This document shows, one piece after another, positions 18,340 to 56,188 of a stretch of 64,000 nt of DNA (the first letter of the stretch is position 1; each line of letters opens with the position of its first letter). The position numbers and the translations under genes are program-made. The notes under the pieces are model-generated. The model was not told the origin of the DNA. It made no database searches and saw nothing but the letters and a program-made list of their open reading frames with translations. The DNA comes from Pascua guehoae (lineage: Eukaryota; Basidiomycota; Tremellomycetes; Trichosporonales; Trichosporonaceae), in assembly GCA_001600415.1 (NCBI GenBank), contig BCJX01000018.1, forward strand, positions 473,534 to 537,533, in the 5' to 3' direction.

Positions 18340-18979
18340 GTTGGGAGTGAAGTGAGGGTGTGAGGGTGTGGTTGAAGAGGGTGTGATGAGTGGGGTGGAA
18401 GAAACGGCACAGGCCGGAGAAGGAAGAGACTTGTAATGTCGTAATGAGAGCGAGATGGGAAAGGAAGAGGGCGAAAAGAACGAAGAGGGAAGCAGAAGGA
18501 AGAGGGAATGGAAAATGAGGAAGTTGAGAGAATGAGAAGAGAAAGATGAGCGGGGGAAGAAAAAAAATGTGAGAGGGAAGGCAAGGCAAAAGGATCGTCG
18601 CGGATGAGTCAACCCGAGTTTGCACGCTGCGCAGCAAGTAGCAGTGGTATGCAGTTGTCTTCACCGCAGTCGCGCGGCGCGTGCGGATTCGCGTCATGTG
18701 CAAGCACGCGTCATTCCTTGTCCACCGATCCACCTGGTGCGGTGGATGCCGTATACAGCGGGGTGAATAACGAACGGAGGTCCACGTCGGCCCGTGCAAC
18801 GAGGAGGAAACCTACACTGTTCAACAACTTGGATACATCAGGAATCTTCACAGAGTGTACACTGGGATGGAGTCGGGGTGGACTGGCAGCAGTGCGCAAT
18901 CAGGATAGCGAGTCGGCTAAGGCACGGGGATGTACGGATGACGAGTTTCTTCGAAGGGATGGGGAATTGGGGCTGGGGC
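18340..18979. other. Spacer between paralogue 2 and the Kex2-repeat precursor
   Basis: The left half is a T/C-rich leader on the minus strand for paralogue 2. The right half is the 3' flank of the precursor gene. Short frames are present but none is supported. Confidence 0.5.
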
Positions 18980-20578
18980 CTACTCGCGGGTGACGAGGGG
19001 GTCGTTCTCACCCTCGGCGTACGAGGGGAGGGCCTCTTCGTCAAAGCCCGCCTCGACGGCCTTGGGGTTTGCGCCGTTCTTGCGCGCCTTGGCGGCCTTG
19101 TACGCGGCCTTGGCCTGCCTGCGCACCTCGCGGCGCTCGCGGCGGCGCTGGCGGCGAAGCTCGCGGGATCCACGGCGGTGGAGGTGGACGGCGAGGAAGA
19201 CGAGCGCAAAGATGACCTGGAGGAAGGCGCCGACGACAGCACCGATCACAAACGCACGGACGGGGACAGGGAGCGACTCGAGGGCGGCACAGAGGCGCGT
19301 CGAGAAGGACGAAAAGGACGAGAAGGCGTCGTCGTCGTGGTCCTTTTGGTCCTTGTGGTCCTTGTGGTGCTTGCCGTGCTTGCCATGCTTGTGCTTGTGG
19401 TCCTTGTGCTTGTAGTCCTTGTGCTTGTGGTCCTTGTGCTTGTGGCCGTGGTGGTGCTTGTGCTTCTTGTGGTCATCGTCGTCGTCATCGTCATCGTCGT
19501 CGTCGTCGTGCTCGGCCTTCTTGAGCTTTTCGAGCTCCTTGAGCTTGGCAACGTGCTCGGCCTGTTTGGCGTTCACGTCCTCACCAGAGATGGGGAGGAT
19601 GCCAAACCATGGGTTGCCCACGGGGCGCTTGCCGGCCGGGCCATCGACAACGAGCACGTTGCCCTGGGGCTTGTGTGTCGAGTGCGGGATAAACTCTACA
19701 AACACCGCGGGCTTGCCAGGGTCTTCCTTGCTGCCGTGCTCAACGTGGCCGTGGCCGTGGCCGTGGTGGTATGCGTGCGGCACCGCGTTCGAGTGAACCC
19801 ACTCCGGGCGGCCAAACTTGGCGAGCAAGGCAGCGAGCGGACGAGGCATCCAGGACGGGCTGCGGCGACCGTCGGGGTGGTTGGGGCACGGTGCCATGCG
19901 CGCGCCCACGCCCGGCGCGGCGTCGCGCGCCTCGACGGGCGTGTCACGCTTGTGGTGCCCGGCAGCGAGGCCGAGGCGGAAGGCGTGGGGGTCGAATTGG
20001 GCGTCGGCTTCGGCGTCACGCTTGGCGGGCGCACCGCCGCCGCCGGCGAGGCCGACCTGCAGGTCGCTGAGGTCAAATGGGGCGGCCTCGGCCTCGCGCT
20101 TGTGGTGCCCGGCGGCGAGGCCGAGGCGGAAGGCGTGGGGGTCGAATTGGGCGTCGGCTTCGGCGTCACGCTTGGCGGGCGCACCGCCGCCGCCGGCGAG
20201 GCCGACCTGCAGGTCGCTGAGGTCAAATGGGGCGGCCTCGGCCTCGCGCTTGTGGTGCCCGGCGGCGAGGCCGAGGCGGAAGGCGTGGGGGTCGAATTGG
20301 GCGTCGGCTTCGGCGTCACGCTTGGCGGGCGCACCGCCGCCGCCGGCGAGGCCGACCTGCAGGTCGTTGAGGTCAAATGGTGCAGCGGTCGCGGCGACGG
20401 CTGGTTGTTAGCATCATTGCAGAAGGGTGGCGTGGGTCGCGTCGGGAGTAGTCGCCAAGCAAGACTACAAGTTTCCACGCTTGGCGGCTGTAAACGGGTG
20501 GCGATCACCGTCCCCCGCTCCCAACTCTGCCTGTGGCAACTCACCAAGGCCGCCGACGAGCGCGAGAGAGAGCTTCAT
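18980..20578 (-). CDS. Secreted membrane-anchored precursor with Kex2-type peptide repeats
   Basis: Two exons, 20578-20545 and 20400-18980, give 484 residues. The intron interrupts the signal peptide, which reads MKLSLALVGGLAVAATA when spliced. Three 50-residue repeats follow, encoded by 150-bp units at 20400-19951. Each holds two peptides bounded by KR: an APFDL(S/N)DLQVGLAGGGAPA segment and a QFDPHAFRLGLAAGHH segment. They are preceded after KR by EAEA and DAEADA respectively, the spacer style removed by dipeptidyl aminopeptidase in the yeast alpha-factor precursor. Downstream are His-rich stretches, an Asp12 run followed by Lys/His repeats, one membrane helix (FVIGAVVGAFLQVIFALVFLAV) and a basic tail with LPSYAE. 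I infer a type I membrane protein that releases small peptides on Kex2 cleavage. Whether these act as signals, repellents or metal binders cannot be told. A 763-residue open frame on the other strand is a GC-bias shadow. Confidence 0.82.
19951..20400 (-). repeat. Three tandem 150-bp coding repeats
   Basis: Units at 20251-20400, 20101-20250 and 19951-20100 are almost identical. The unit nearest the start differs at its N-terminal edge, where it merges with the signal peptide, and has Asn for Ser. The last differs by a silent base. The period is in frame (50 codons). Such identity points to recent duplication or ongoing homogenisation. Confidence 0.95.
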
Positions 20579-21237
20579 GGTAACGAGTGTGGTGATGCCC
20601 GAAGGCGAAAGGTTGGTGGGGTGAACAAGGCTGGTGGGGGAGAGAGAAGTGTTGTAGGTCAAGGTGAGGAGGTTGGAATGGACGGTGCGAATTGTGCGTT
20701 TGGTGCCGACGGCATACGCAAGTCTAGTCTTTACGCCACCCAACTTGGCACAGCGGTGCACGCTGAGAAGCAAGGGGACAGGGGCAAGGGGCTGGCTGGT
20801 GGAATTGCCAAGGCTGGGTGGCGCGGGAGCAGAAATATGGGGGAAGGGGAGGTGCGGGAAGTCACGTGTGCAGCCACGTGTGGAACCACATGTTGTGGCA
20901 GTCGCATTCACCGCAGTGGTGTGAGTGTGTCATGCATGGCACTAGTGCAGCAGTTGGACCAGCTGGATAGACCGTCTGCAGTGATAATGTCTGTATGCGT
21001 ACCGGTCAATCCCAAAGTGCCGGCAAACTACACCCCATACTACATTCACAGCTCGCGAACGTGGTCAACGTTGCCCGTGTCTTGACTGGCTCTCCCCTTG
21101 TATGCGGTTCTTCAGAGACTACTACCCTAGTGGCTTTTCTGATTCATGACATGTTTTTATTCAGCAATTCCCCTCTGCTAACCATTTTCACCTGTCCATG
21201 TATTTACGATAGCCTGGAGCAACCCTTTCCCCTCCCT
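20579..21237. promoter_or_regulatory. Promoter of the Kex2-repeat precursor
   Basis: This 659-bp spacer includes CACGTG at 20863-20868 and 20875-20880, about 290 bp before the precursor ATG, and the short 3' flank of the ABC transporter. No additional gene is seen. Confidence 0.5.
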
Positions 21238-24200
21238 TCACTCCTCGAAGAATCCCTCGCGCTGCAGAGTGAACAGCTGGTGATAATGGCCGCCGAGAGC
21301 CATGAGCTCTGAATGTGTGCCAAACTCGGTGATCGTCTACAGTATGGTGTGAGCAGGCTGGCACCGCAAGAAACCACACGCCCAGGTTGCAGAGAAAACC
21401 CACCCCTTTCTCCATAAAAGCAATCTTGTCTGCGCGGCGGACGGTGCTGAGCCTATGCGAGATGTAGATTGTCGTAGGACCTGTGGCGGTGTGCTCGTCT
21501 TCGCCACCGAGGTTGCCGTTGGCACTTGACAATCCCTCCGAGTCGCCGCCGTTTGCGGTCTCGGAATGATTTTTGCGACGGCGAGCCTTGATGCTCCCCG
21601 AAAGCGAGTGAATGCGGTCAAACAACTCAGCTTCGGCGCGGGGGTCGAGGGACGCGCTGGGCTCGTCAAAGACGATGAGGTCGGCGTTGTCCGAACGCAT
21701 AAAGGCGCGTGCCAACGCGATGCGCTGCCACTGGCCCCCAGAAAGCCGTAGGGAGTCTGGCATTTTCCACTCTCCAACACTGGACGTGGTCTTCTGCTTA
21801 GGCTTGGCAGTGGTGGTTACGGGCCCTTTGGGGGTTTCGGTGTCGGCGGGGTCCTTGTCGCCTGCATCCTGCTTGTCGCCTGCGTCCTGCTTGTCGCCTG
21901 CGTCCTGCTTGTCGCCTGCGTCCTGCTCGTCGCCTGCGTCGCCCTTCTCTTTTCCCGAAACCTCAGCCGCTGTTCGGTCAGCATATTGACAGCGGTGGTT
22001 CTGCATACATTTTTCGGGTTTCTCTTCCTCGCTATTCGTGCTCTCCGTGGCCGTTGTCCCGGTGGGGGTTGACGAGTCTTGATTGTTATTCCAGTCCAGT
22101 ACTTGATCGCCTGCCTTCTTTGCGATCTCATCTGCACCCCCTCGGCTGATCGCGCGGTCAATGGCAAGTTTGTCGTCCATGAGGGCAATGTCACCGACAC
22201 TGACGTTCTCGCGAAGTGTGACGGGGTACCGTGCATAGTCCTGGAAGACACAGCTGGTGTAGGCGTGGATAGAGTCCTTATCGTACTTGCTGACCTCGAT
22301 GCCGTTGATGGTCAGACTCCCGGTGTATCCGGACAGCAGACCCATAAGAAGCTTGACAAGGGTAGTCTTGCCGCCGCCGTTGTAACCGACAAGAGCGAGT
22401 GTCTCCCCAGGGAGCACCGAAATGTTGATGTTGTGGAGAACCTCTGGTCGGCCTGCGGTGGAGTCGGACGCCTGTTGCGCGAAGGGGACGGAATTGGCAT
22501 TGACCGGGTATGTGAAGCTGACGCCACGAGCCTCGATGTGCATTCCGGCTCTGCGTTGAGTGTTGTAGTTGACCAGTGTACCCCTTGAGGGAGGCTCAAG
22601 GGCGATGACGAAGGCTGCTGAGAGGAAAATAGCTTGATAAACTTTGCCGCTCGCCTCAAACACCTGTTTGTACGTAGAAATGACACTAGACGACATGTGC
22701 CGGTAGAGGTGAAGAGCGCCGATAGTAAGCTGTGCGTTGATCGTCCGTGTCGCAATGAGAATCTGGGCAGCGGTCAGAGAAGGTTCTTTTAATGTCCAAG
22801 AATCACTCACAAAAAGTGCGTTCTCTGCTACTCGCTCGGTCATTCGAACTACAAGGTAGACATCATGCCCCCCCCGTCGCTCCTCGTCGTATTTTCGGTA
22901 CTCGTTCACCGCCCCTTCCCACCTTCTCATCACCCATGGGGCGAGCCCAAAAAGAAGAACTTCCTGCTTGTGGGATTCTGCCGTCCCAATGCGACACATT
23001 TCGGAAGCAGCGTGCCTGAGGGAAAATTTCTGGAAGCCTTGTTCAAAGAGAGTGTCCTGCATCCGAGACGCGACCCACATGGCCGCAGCTGGAAGCGCGG
23101 TGGCCCCGAAGAGCAAGGCGTTGTCGAATGTCCAGAGGCGCCCCGACCCAGAAACAGATAGTGTGCGGACGAGTAGCCAAGCTTGGCTGACCAGTGCAAT
23201 GGTGTTGCAGAGCATGTCGCCTGTCCTTCTCATCGCGTCGAAGGGGTCCATAATCGAATTGTCATAGATCCACCCATCGCCCTTGTAAGTGGGCCCTTTG
23301 CCTGCGAATCGGGACACGTCACACAAAAGGGCGGTCCACATTGGTGATGACGACTCCGTGATGTCGAGTGCGAGATGCGTTTGGAGACAAACTTGATCAA
23401 CGTAGTAGTTTACACGGAGCTTTTTGTTCGTGAGTGAAAGAATCGCTTGCCAGATCACGTCCAGACACATGCACACGCTTACCTTCAAGTTATTGGCGTT
23501 GCGCGCAGATACTTGACTAAGCGTCATCTGAAGCACAGCAACGAAGATGGCCCTTCCGACAGCCCACGACACGTCGGACCATGGTACTGCCCCGTCACGC
23601 AGCGAGCGTTCAACCAAGTCCATGAGTTGGCTGCCTGCCCACAGTCTGAAGTGGTCAGCACCCTCACCCTAACCCTTCTCTGCTCAACTCACTCCAACGC
23701 CGGCACAATACCCTTGAGGACAATGTCGACCATATACAGACCGAGGCGGAGGGCAACAGTGAAGGACATGAGCCCCCACAGCTTGGGGACGATAATCAGG
23801 CACAGGTCGAGAGCGATGAGCATGTTTGCAAAGGTCACTGGCCGCGGGGAGTTGGAGCCAAAACCAAAAGCTGCTGCTGGTGCTGGAGCGCCATTGGCGG
23901 CTTTGGTCTTGTTGCCTGTGTTCTTGCTGACGTCGTCGCCGTTTGGTTTCTGCTTCTCGCTGGGGGCCTTGTCGTCGGTCGCGGGTATCTTGTCTTCCTT
24001 TACATTGTTGTTCGTTTTGGGGGAGTCGCGCTTGCCATCTTTGCCCGCCATACGAGCCTGGATCCAGAGGCGCATGAGAAGCGGGAAACGGTCGTACTCT
24101 GCAGGCAGATTCAGTGTCGCAAAGCGAGGTTGGCTGGGATCCGGACGGGGTGGAGCAGGTTTGGCAGTCCGTGGGGCTGTGCCGTTGGCTGTGGCGCTCT

Positions 24201-33425: not shown

Positions 33426-33464
<39 letters not shown>

Positions 33465-34523
33465 CGGGGGAGGATGGGGGGAAGGGGGAGGATGGGGGGA
33501 TGGGGATGGATGGTGGATGGGGGAGGTTGCAAGGGTGTCTGGTATTCCATGCCGGCGCCGAGTTGGGTCTGGGTCTTGACCACACTCGTCACGACTGGTC
33601 CCGGCCAGCTGCGGGAACGACTGGCCTAGATCTGCCCGTACCTCCATTCCCACTCTCGAACCCCCGGCTCCCCCCCCCCCGGGATCCCACTCGTCCAACT
33701 CTTGCTCTTCCGCAGTCATCTCGCCATTTCCACCCCAGCTCGCCGTCTGCGCCGTCGCGCCGTCCTACTCCCACCGAGCTCCCGGGTCTGTCTCCCGCCG
33801 TCGCGGTCCAGCCCTCTTCGGCGCAGCACTCTGCCGCCCTTCTCATTCCCTGACTGCCAGCTTCCTCCGACTTGCCGTGCGCAACGCATCCTCGCAGCGT
33901 GTGGAAGCGTGACAGCGTGGCAGCGTGTGGCAGTGTGTGACAGCGTGTGGCAGCATGGCAGCGTGGTAGCGTGGCAGCGTGGCAGCGAGAGGGACATTTC
34001 TGTCCCCCCTCGAGAAATGACTCGTCGTCGTCTTCACCGCACATGGGAGTCTATTCGGTACGCGTTCGGGTACCACGGGTGGGTATCGTTCAGAGCAAGT
34101 CCAGGCCATCAGTCATCTGCCAATAGCAGGTCGGCTGAGTCTGCTGGGTGCCGCCCCAGCGTGGGTCTCTCTGTACCTCCCTTGGCTGTTGGGCTCTCCC
34201 CGTCTCCCGTGTCTCCCGTCCGCCCGTCCAGTCCATCTCCCGTCTGTCTCTCAGTCCGTCCCAGTCCGTCTCCGAGTTTGTTCCCAGTCCGCTCCCAATC
34301 CGTCTCCCAGTCCGCTCCCAGTCCGTCTCCCAGTCCGCTCCCAACGCCCTCGAGTCCCCTCGCATTCCCCTCAATCCCTTCCGTCTGTCTCCGTCCGTCT
34401 CCAACGTCCCCATACCCTCTCAGTCTTGCTCCCCGTGCTCCACCTCTTCCCCCCCCCCGGGCCCCTTCGCCTCTACTTTCCTTACCCCCTTCCCCCCCCC
34501 TCTCCCCCCCCCCCCCCCCCCCC

Positions 34524-34570
<47 letters not shown>

Positions 34571-54757: not shown

Positions 54758-56157
54758 TCAGACAGCCCCGGCGCCCTCGCCGAGACTCTCAAAGAAGCGC
54801 CGCTTCTCCTTTATACTCGGACAAATGGCCAGGACGACGCGGGTAGTCTCGGCCCACGCGCGGCGGTCTGCCGCTTGGCCGCTGACGTACTCTGCAAAGC
54901 ACTGTTTGCCCACGCCGCCTGCGCGGAGGGCGCGGCGGATCTCGTCGCGGCGCCGCATGCGGTCGAGGGCGTGGGCGCGGGCGGCAATGGCGGGGTGCGT
55001 GCTCGGGCGGACACTCGAGGGGAGGATGCCCGCGGCGACTAGCGTGGGCGCGCTGGGGCGCACGGCGAGGCGGAGGGTGAGGTTGCGTTCGAGGCCGTGG
55101 CGCGTGAGCTGGGCGTGGATGTGGGAGAGGCGGACGGCCTGTGTGGGTTAGTACGGTGATGGAAGGGGGAACGTGGGGTGAGACGTAGACAAGAAGAGGC
55201 ACAGCGAGTTGGATGATAAATACAAAAAGAGTCTGCTTGTGGGAGGGAACGAGTTTGGCATGTACATAAGTGAGGGCCAAGAATGGTTCTTAGGAGGGAA
55301 TGGACGTGGCAGGAAGAAGGGAGGACAGGGCGTCACGGAGCGGGGGTGGAGAAATGCGCACTCAACAACCACAAATTCCAAGTTCTGTCCCAAGCCGAGG
55401 GTCAAGGCACAGTAGGGATAAGCCCAACCGCACGACAACGACAGTGTCTACTGTATTGAGAGACCGCAATAACCGCCGCCATGAAATATCCCAGTCTCGT
55501 TCACCCGAGCATTCTCCTCAGATGTTGACAAGACCGCTCCCCTTCCTGATGCGCATCGCATGGGCATAGGCGACGAGTCTGCCGCCCTGATGGCCATGAA
55601 CCACTAGATGTTCAACAAGGCTATCTAGCCCTCCACGAATATGGACAGCTCGACCCATCGGTTGGGGAACAAGCTCCAGTCTTGTGCCGCGTGCACACTG
55701 GCAAGCCTAGCGACGGCTCAACAAGCAGTGGCCCATCCACCCTCGGCTACTCGTCCACTTGGGAAGAAAGACCACCACTTGTCCCGTCCAGGCTCAACTC
55801 ATGTCCCTGCCCCAGCTGCAGTAGGTCTTATCCTCCCCACTGACATCTGCTCGATCTCACGCCACCTCGGTACCGTCCTAGTCTCAATCCCAGCTCCAGT
55901 CCAACCCATGCCATGCTCTCCTCCCAACCCTTGAGACCCCCCACCCCCCTACTCTTAACTCACCGGCTCGCTCGCCCAGTACCCTCCCGCCCTCACGCCC
56001 GCGACGATACCGACGCCGCGGAGCGTGCCGCGGCGCACGAGTTCGAGCGGGTCCGGACGGAGGCTGAGGGGCGAGAAGAGGGCGTGGCCGATGCGCGAGG
56101 GGGCCGTCTGGGTGTTAGTGCTGTGGGTAAGAAGGGGGGGGGGGGGGTTGTCCGGGT

Positions 56158-56188
<31 letters not shown>

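What the first reader, a model, noticed from the sequence alone, without database searches (positions are those of the whole stretch)
18980..20578. Kex2-repeat peptide precursor with alpha-factor-like spacers in a membrane-anchored, His-rich protein
Seen in sequence: a signal peptide, three near-identical 50-residue units each with two KR sites, EAEA and DAEADA directly after KR, an Asp12/His/Lys-rich region and one membrane helix. Known: KR is the Kex2 signal, and X-Ala dipeptides after it are trimmed by Ste13-type peptidases in ascomycete alpha-factor. Basidiomycete mating pheromones are instead farnesylated, so this would be another kind of secreted peptide. Predicted products are APFDLSDLQVGLAGGGAPA and QFDPHAFRLGLAAGHH, three copies each, the second with an N-terminal Gln that could cyclise. 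Tethering the precursor to the membrane through a His-rich stalk is unusual.
Basis: partly seen in the sequence, partly recalled or inferred. Interest (0 to 1): 0.87.

Follow-up and report, generated by a model that had tools for sequence, protein, structure and literature searches.

The report
Membrane-tethered, multi-copy fungal peptide precursor
A fungus, probably a Trichosporonales yeast, carries a gene whose protein lines up six related short peptides between KR sites and has a predicted membrane anchor near its end; cutting would likely free two kinds of signalling peptide, and the four relatives with a complete protein start carry just one copy, so this may show how a multi-copy peptide signal arises.

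Summary
The anatomy is real: a 484-residue protein on the minus strand (one predicted intron), three near-identical 50-residue units, six KR sites, DAEADA (x3) and EAEA (x2) spacers, Asp12, a His/Lys-rich arm and one membrane helix. Peptide 1 has four glycines, not three, and starts with Ala-Pro, itself a Ste13-type dipeptide, so its mature form is more likely FDLSDLQVGLAGGGGAPA. The architecture matches known Kex2-processed repeat proteins (KEPs) with Ste13 signature, already published for basidiomycetes. Two things go beyond that. First, the precursor is membrane-anchored; the 2019 survey discarded such proteins. Second, seven relatives (four named Cutaneotrichosporon, three unnamed) share the His-rich arm, membrane segment and tail (EEALPS[YH]) but show no KR repeat; the four with a signal peptide carry one core (FDFSRFRVGHTG-like) directly after it. 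The six best matches to that core in our protein are exactly the six KR-flanked peptides, so this KEP looks like an amplified single-copy N-terminal peptide of a conserved, uncharacterised membrane protein. Kex2, a Ste13-type peptidase and S10 carboxypeptidases are encoded in the same genome. Release, function and receptor are untested. New variant of a known kind.

The parts
20545..20578 (-). exon 1: start codon and most of the signal peptide
20401..20544 (-). predicted 144-nt intron (GTGAGT ... TGCTAAC ... CAG)
   Evidence: not confirmed by RNA
18980..20400 (-). exon 2 with the rest of the 484-aa protein and stop codon
   Evidence: best codon score of six frames
20384..20400 (-). end of the predicted signal peptide (...AVAATA|A)
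   Evidence: hydropathy peak at residue 4
20324..20383 (-). peptide 1, copy 1 (APFDLNDLQVGLAGGGGAPA), then KR
   Evidence: core match 21.2
20252..20299 (-). peptide 2, copy 1 (QFDPHAFRLGLAAGHH), preceded by KR-DAEADA, then KR
   Evidence: core match 19.6
20174..20233 (-). peptide 1, copy 2 (Ser version), preceded by KR-EAEA
   Evidence: core match 23.0
20102..20149 (-). peptide 2, copy 2
   Evidence: core match 19.6
20024..20083 (-). peptide 1, copy 3
   Evidence: core match 23.0
19952..19999 (-). peptide 2, copy 3, then the last KR (KR-DTPVEARDAAP)
   Evidence: core match 19.6
19472..19507 (-). Asp12 run
19328..19471 (-). His/Lys/Asp-rich arm; relatives have a His-rich arm here too
19193..19249 (-). 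predicted single membrane helix VIGAVVGAFLQVIFALVFL
   Evidence: hydropathy; helix with block pLDDT over 90 in the model; conserved in relatives
19019..19030 (-). LPSY in the predicted cytosolic tail EEALPSYAEGENDPLV (LPxY as a Rsp5-type motif is recalled)
   Evidence: EEALPS invariant in 8 of 8 sequences, Tyr in 7 of 8

Best explanation
This gene encodes a predicted type I membrane protein whose N-terminal arm lines up six versions of one short peptide between KR sites; it is likely cut by Kex2 and trimmed by Kex1- and Ste13-type peptidases to release two kinds of secreted, probably signalling, peptide, while the His-rich remainder would stay in the membrane. Shown by sequence: the order of parts, the three near-identical units, the six KR sites, the X-Ala spacers, the membrane segment, and the likeness of the six peptides to a single-copy core that sits directly after the signal peptide in four Cutaneotrichosporon relatives. 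Inferred: in the late Golgi Kex2 cuts after each KR, a carboxypeptidase removes KR, and Ste13 strips EA-EA and DA-EA-DA (and probably the AP of peptide 1), giving FDLSDLQVGLAGGGGAPA and QFDPHAFRLGLAAGHH (pyroglutamate likely), three copies each per molecule (one peptide-1 copy with Asn for Ser). Inferred too: the array arose by tandem amplification of an ancestral single peptide, with stronger cutting sites, which would raise peptide dose per precursor. The tether would carry the precursor along the membrane route to the Kex2 compartment and leave a possibly metal-binding His-rich stub at the surface, removed through its LPSY tail; that last step is the least certain.
For: The six best windows for the relatives' core in our 484-aa protein are exactly the six KR-flanked peptides (19.6-23.0; next 5.2), and both types in one unit reach the observed scores in 0 of 5000 unit shuffles. 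The core is 72% identical on average among five relatives (10 pairs), against 39% in the stretch after it. KR[DE]A in the lumen: 5 in ours, 0 in each of 7 relatives, three of which lack a complete N-terminus. Kex2 with P-domain, one Ste13/DPP-IV protein, S10 carboxypeptidases (not assigned to Kex1). Spacers exceed chance. LxxR, an expanded Kex2 motif (PMC8528282, passages), follows the core region in 5 of the 6 relatives with that part available (not P0003), three times as LxER|[DE]AAP.
Against: No peptide, RNA or localisation data. Peptide homology is modest: shuffles of the whole luminal part reach the top core score in 14 of 1000 cases and the sixth score in 72 of 1000; the 12 single pairwise comparisons are reached by 15 to 1288 of 2000 shuffles; the five cores were picked by eye. 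A lone LxxR is expected in 9-18% of shuffles of that stretch, LxxR also occurs further down as LLxRLG, and three carriers are close kin. The Arg right after the core has mostly Ala at P2, not a preferred Kex2 residue. In a mushroom, the tested kex knockouts did not abolish KEP peptides (PMC9769878, passages). No receptor identified. The direction single-to-multiple rests on an unrooted tree and on few relatives.
Confidence: 0.6

Rival explanations
1. The N-terminal arm is a disposable propeptide: cutting matters only to mature the anchored His-rich protein, and the freed pieces have no job of their own.
For: The membrane segment and tail are the best conserved parts. C. albicans Ywp1 is a precedent: a Kex2-cut propeptide of an anchored surface protein that stays bound to it (PMC6258133, passages). 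The four relatives with a signal peptide carry a single copy.
Against: A throw-away propeptide would need neither six copies nor Ste13 spacers, nor a core more conserved than the stretch after it (72% against 39%).
Confidence: 0.2
2. The peptides are structural or surface-active, coating the cell wall like U. maydis Rep1 peptides, rather than signals.
For: Rep1 is a Kex2-cut repeat protein whose peptides form fibrils on the hyphal surface (PMC8528282, passages); cell-surface tethering would fit.
Against: Le Marquer et al. note that Rep1 lacks the Ste13 signature (PMC6339444), which is present here at five of six KR junctions.
Confidence: 0.1
3. It is an alpha-type mating pheromone precursor.
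For: KR plus repeated X-Ala spacers is the alpha-factor layout.
Against: Neither peptide has Cys or Trp, unlike filamentous ascomycete alpha pheromones (pattern recalled and); the genome has a better candidate (QWDQSGATCGTGCW x5) and a STE3 receptor; no STE2 found (without a positive control).
Confidence: 0.04
4. The protein is not processed; the KR repeats are a by-product of tandem duplication in an Ala/Gly-rich arm.
For: Units are nearly identical at the DNA level, so recent duplication alone can copy KR sites; the opposite strand is open too and scores close behind over the units.
Against: Two different KR/spacer junctions within one unit, each at a core boundary; processing enzymes present.
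Confidence: 0.06

Closest known systems
KEX2-processed repeat proteins (KEPs) with STE13 signature in Basidiomycota (Le Marquer 2019, PMC6339444; Umemura 2020, PMC7329392; PMC9769878; passages read)
   Same: Signal peptide, near-identical repeats, KR before X-Ala dipeptides, several peptides per precursor; pyroglutamate peptides known from this class.
   Different: Membrane helix and conserved cytosolic tail; the 2019 survey discarded TMHMM-positive proteins. Two alternating versions of the peptide per unit; single-copy homologues in related species.
T. oleaginosus alpha-pheromone-like KEP (QSWGGCGGRGTPCW, PMC6339444, passages)
   Same: Ste13 signature; the species is, as recalled, the C. oleaginosum of relative P0003.
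   Different: Cys-containing peptide, anchor excluded by that survey's filter; its likely counterpart here is the separate C4 gene, not this one.
Candida albicans Ywp1 (PMC6258133, passages)
   Same: Kex2-cut N-terminal piece of a surface-anchored protein.
   Different: Cell-wall anchor instead of a membrane helix; one propeptide of 11 kDa that stays bound.
Uncharacterised Cutaneotrichosporon proteins, e.g. CC85DRAFT_328787 (P0003)
   Same: Homologous: His-rich arm, membrane helix, tail EEALPS[YH], core after the signal peptide.
   Different: One core, no KR in the lumen, 291-354 aa (four named proteins) against 484 aa.
Cryptococcus Qsp1 (PMC7537855, start of abstract in search listing only)
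   Same: Secreted signalling peptide of a basidiomycete yeast.
   Different: No sequence comparison made here.

Membership tests
KEP (Kex2-processed repeat protein) | N-terminal signal peptide | tested here: met
   hydropathy and A-x-A cleavage context only, no SignalP
KEP (Kex2-processed repeat protein) | at least four fragments between KR/RR sites with a repeated motif | tested here: met
   six KR, three units; rule read
KEP (Kex2-processed repeat protein) | not membrane-located (TMHMM filter of the 2019 survey) | tested here: not met
   membrane helix at residues 396-414; filter read. The passages read of the 2020 procedure name SignalP and repeat detection but no membrane filter
KEP (Kex2-processed repeat protein) | peptides released in vivo | not testable with these tools
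   needs peptidomics
alpha-type mating pheromone | repeated XA/XP dipeptides after KR | tested here: met
alpha-type mating pheromone | cognate STE2 receptor in genome | tested here: inconclusive
   no hit, but nothing rang in the control genomes either
Dikaritin / ustiloxin-type RiPP | UstYa (DUF3328) genes | tested here: inconclusive
   no hit in the genome, no positive control
Dikaritin / ustiloxin-type RiPP | Tyr in the core for cyclisation (recalled) | tested here: not met
   no Tyr in either peptide
Orphan His-rich membrane protein family (P0001-P0007) | core peptide, His-rich arm, one membrane helix, EEALPS[YH] tail | tested here: met
   no Pfam family for 7 of 7 relatives at E 0.01

The most novel reading that the evidence does not exclude
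A multi-copy peptide-hormone precursor caught near its birth: the single N-terminal peptide of a conserved His-rich membrane protein was amplified into six Kex2/Ste13-released copies, making one gene product that is both a peptide signal source and its own membrane-held partner. Membrane-anchored precursors of this kind would form a class that secretome surveys have filtered out.
Probability: 0.4. Interest if true: 0.75.

Novelty: new variant of a known kind. Interest (0 to 1): 0.6.

Why it matters
How multi-copy peptide signals originate is hard to see when a precursor has no single-copy homologue to compare with. Here single-copy and multi-copy states occur in related fungi with the same anchor and tail, so origin, dose and processing can be compared directly. 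It also points to a blind spot: filters that discard membrane proteins would miss tethered precursors.

Tried and rejected
The whole-protein homology search timed out. Region 1-300 of our protein found nothing at E 0.001; region 375-484 found P0001 only. The six Pfam hits of our protein (CDC45 6.2e-06 and five weaker) are all below their curated cut-offs, five of them in charged, low-complexity or membrane stretches, so I rejected them. A PDB profile search gave nothing better than E 0.086. The AlphaFold model is disordered apart from helices (mean pLDDT 51) and was not used for fold searches. Of 21 genome hits of KR[DE]A[DE]A (5 to the reversed control pattern), 5 lie in this gene and 4 in one other gene; I read the open frames around the other 12 by eye, one of them partly withheld, and saw no repeated array. 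The idea that the two peptides are unrelated was rejected (6 of 5000 shuffles reach their alignment score). Literature: no membrane-anchored KEP appeared in the listings (PMC open-licence papers only; from these I read passages of five papers).

Full report
Observation. The window is a stretch of contig C18 of a 33.6-Mb, 28-contig genome. On the minus strand at 20578-18980 a two-exon gene encodes 484 residues. Exon 2 alone is open for 475 codons but has no early Met, and the upstream exon with a GTGAGT donor and a TGCTAAC...CAG acceptor supplies a typical secretion signal ending ATA|APFDL. The opposite strand is also open over 772 codons, so I tested the frame: codon usage trained on Kex2 and Ste13 exons of this genome and on the neighbouring ABC-transporter exon favours the minus-strand coding frame in all four sub-regions, narrowly over the units (0.399 against 0.318) (register rechecked). 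Protein homology settles the frame for the C-terminal part.

Anatomy. Unit of 50 residues: APFDL(N/S)DLQVGLAGGGGAPA-KR-DAEADA-QFDPHAFRLGLAAGHH-KR-EAEA, three times, the third ending KR-DTPVEARDAAP. Over the 150-bp unit, copies 1 and 2 differ at 3 bases; copies 2 and 3 differ at 2 bases up to and including the second KR and at 6 more after it, where the array ends. KR[DE]A[DE]A occurs five times; 20,000 shuffles of the mature protein never gave more than one. After the units come Cys183, an Asp12 run, a His/Lys/Asp-rich arm, one strong membrane segment and a basic tail with LPSY. AlphaFold gives a mostly disordered luminal part with two lower-confidence helices, and confident helices around and after the membrane segment (mean pLDDT 51).

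Peptide identity. Ste13 prefers X-Ala and X-Pro dipeptides (PMC6339444, passages). Applied to KR-EAEA-AP-FDL this takes EA, EA and probably AP; applied to KR-DAEADA-QF it stops at Gln. Seen this way both products begin at or next to Phe-Asp and align: FDLSDLQVGLAGG / FDPHAFRLGLAAG (6 of 5000 shuffles reach the score).

Relatives. A profile search returned seven proteins at E up to 1 (weakest 1.3e-19): P0002 Cutaneotrichosporon sp. HIS471, P0003 C. oleaginosum, P0005 C. spelunceum, P0006 C. cavernicola, and unnamed P0001, P0004, P0007. P0001 was part of the query. Only 7996 candidates were scored, so the list is a lower bound. All seven share a His-rich lumen, a membrane segment and the tail EEALPS[YH]; P0006 lacks part of the basic tail, perhaps a gene-model fault. 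The fungus of the window is therefore probably a member of Trichosporonales, an inference from these hits. None of the seven has KR in the lumen. Three do not show a complete N-terminus (P0004 lacks the region; P0001 and P0007 show no signal peptide). The four with a signal peptide carry one core directly after it, (F/V)DFxxFR[VIL]GH[TA]G[VI]xRD. In five relatives the core, picked by eye, is 72% identical on average over 10 pairs, the stretch after it 39%. Scanning our whole protein with the five cores, the six highest windows are exactly the six KR-flanked peptides, 19.6-23.0, next 5.2. Luminal shuffles reach the top value in 14 of 1000 and the sixth in 72 of 1000; shuffles of one unit reach the top value in 21 of 5000 and both values in 0 of 5000. 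Pairwise, the 12 peptide-relative comparisons are reached by 15 to 1288 of 2000 shuffles. So the kinship is supported as a pattern, and weakly to moderately for any one peptide. Relatives also carry LxxR after the core region (5 of the 6 with that region; not P0003), in three cases followed by [DE]AAP and in P0007 by DAEA. LxxR is an expanded Kex2 motif (PMC8528282, passages), but one LxxR is expected in 9-18% of shuffles, it also occurs further down as LLxRLG, and three of the carriers are close kin. A C-terminal tree joins ours with P0001 (bootstrap 94 of 100), unrooted, with a long P0007 branch.

Machinery. The genome encodes a Kex2-like protein with P-domain, whose open frames show subtilase-like catalytic motifs (recalled) and a membrane segment; one Ste13/DPP-IV family protein; S10 carboxypeptidases (15 matches on three contigs, not assigned to Kex1); and a STE3-type receptor. 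STE2 and UstYa gave no match, but neither rang in the control genomes, so absence is not shown. No paralogue of this gene was found (1 match, itself).

Literature. The KEP class and its Ste13-signature members in Basidiomycota are published (PMC6339444, PMC7329392, PMC9769878; passages read). The 2019 pipeline discarded membrane-located proteins by TMHMM; the passages read of the 2020 procedure mention SignalP but no membrane filter. The 2020 abstract gives an average of 1.00 KEP per tremellomycete strain. No membrane-anchored KEP appeared in the listings.

Reading. The best account is an amplified, membrane-tethered KEP that likely releases two versions of one conserved peptide. Signalling is preferred because of the Ste13 spacers, the conservation of the core and precedent, but no receptor or response is known. 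The main rival is a disposable propeptide of an anchored His-rich protein.

Noticed in passing
own genome, G000:C4:1236824-1237242 (L008-L011, L028): A second Ste13-signature repeat precursor: signal-like MKTSFLALFALFATAIAVPV upstream, then five copies of QWDQSGATCGTGCW, each followed by KKR and an Ala-rich spacer. It resembles ascomycete alpha pheromones and the T. oleaginosus peptide QSWGGCGGRGTPCW of PMC6339444.
   Followed up: partly
own genome, G000:C5:891564-892495 (L023, L024): STE3-type pheromone receptor gene, the basidiomycete mating receptor type.
   Followed up: no
window 21188-23668, minus strand: Upstream neighbour: ABC transporter ATP-binding domain exon (Pfam ABC_tran 6.1e-22) with an internal 18-bp tandem repeat at 21854-21940.
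   Followed up: no
window 18767-21085, plus strand: A 772-codon open frame (stop to stop) runs antisense over the whole gene; it scores below the coding frame in the four sub-regions tested and is taken as a composition effect.
   Followed up: yes
relatives P0001-P0007, C-terminal tail: EEALPS near the C-terminus is invariant, with Tyr next to it except His in P0005; LPxY is a Rsp5-type motif (recalled), suggesting regulated endocytosis.
   Followed up: no
window 33428-33499, 34492-34570, 56134-56187: Long impure homopolymer G or C tracts of 54-79 bases.
   Followed up: no
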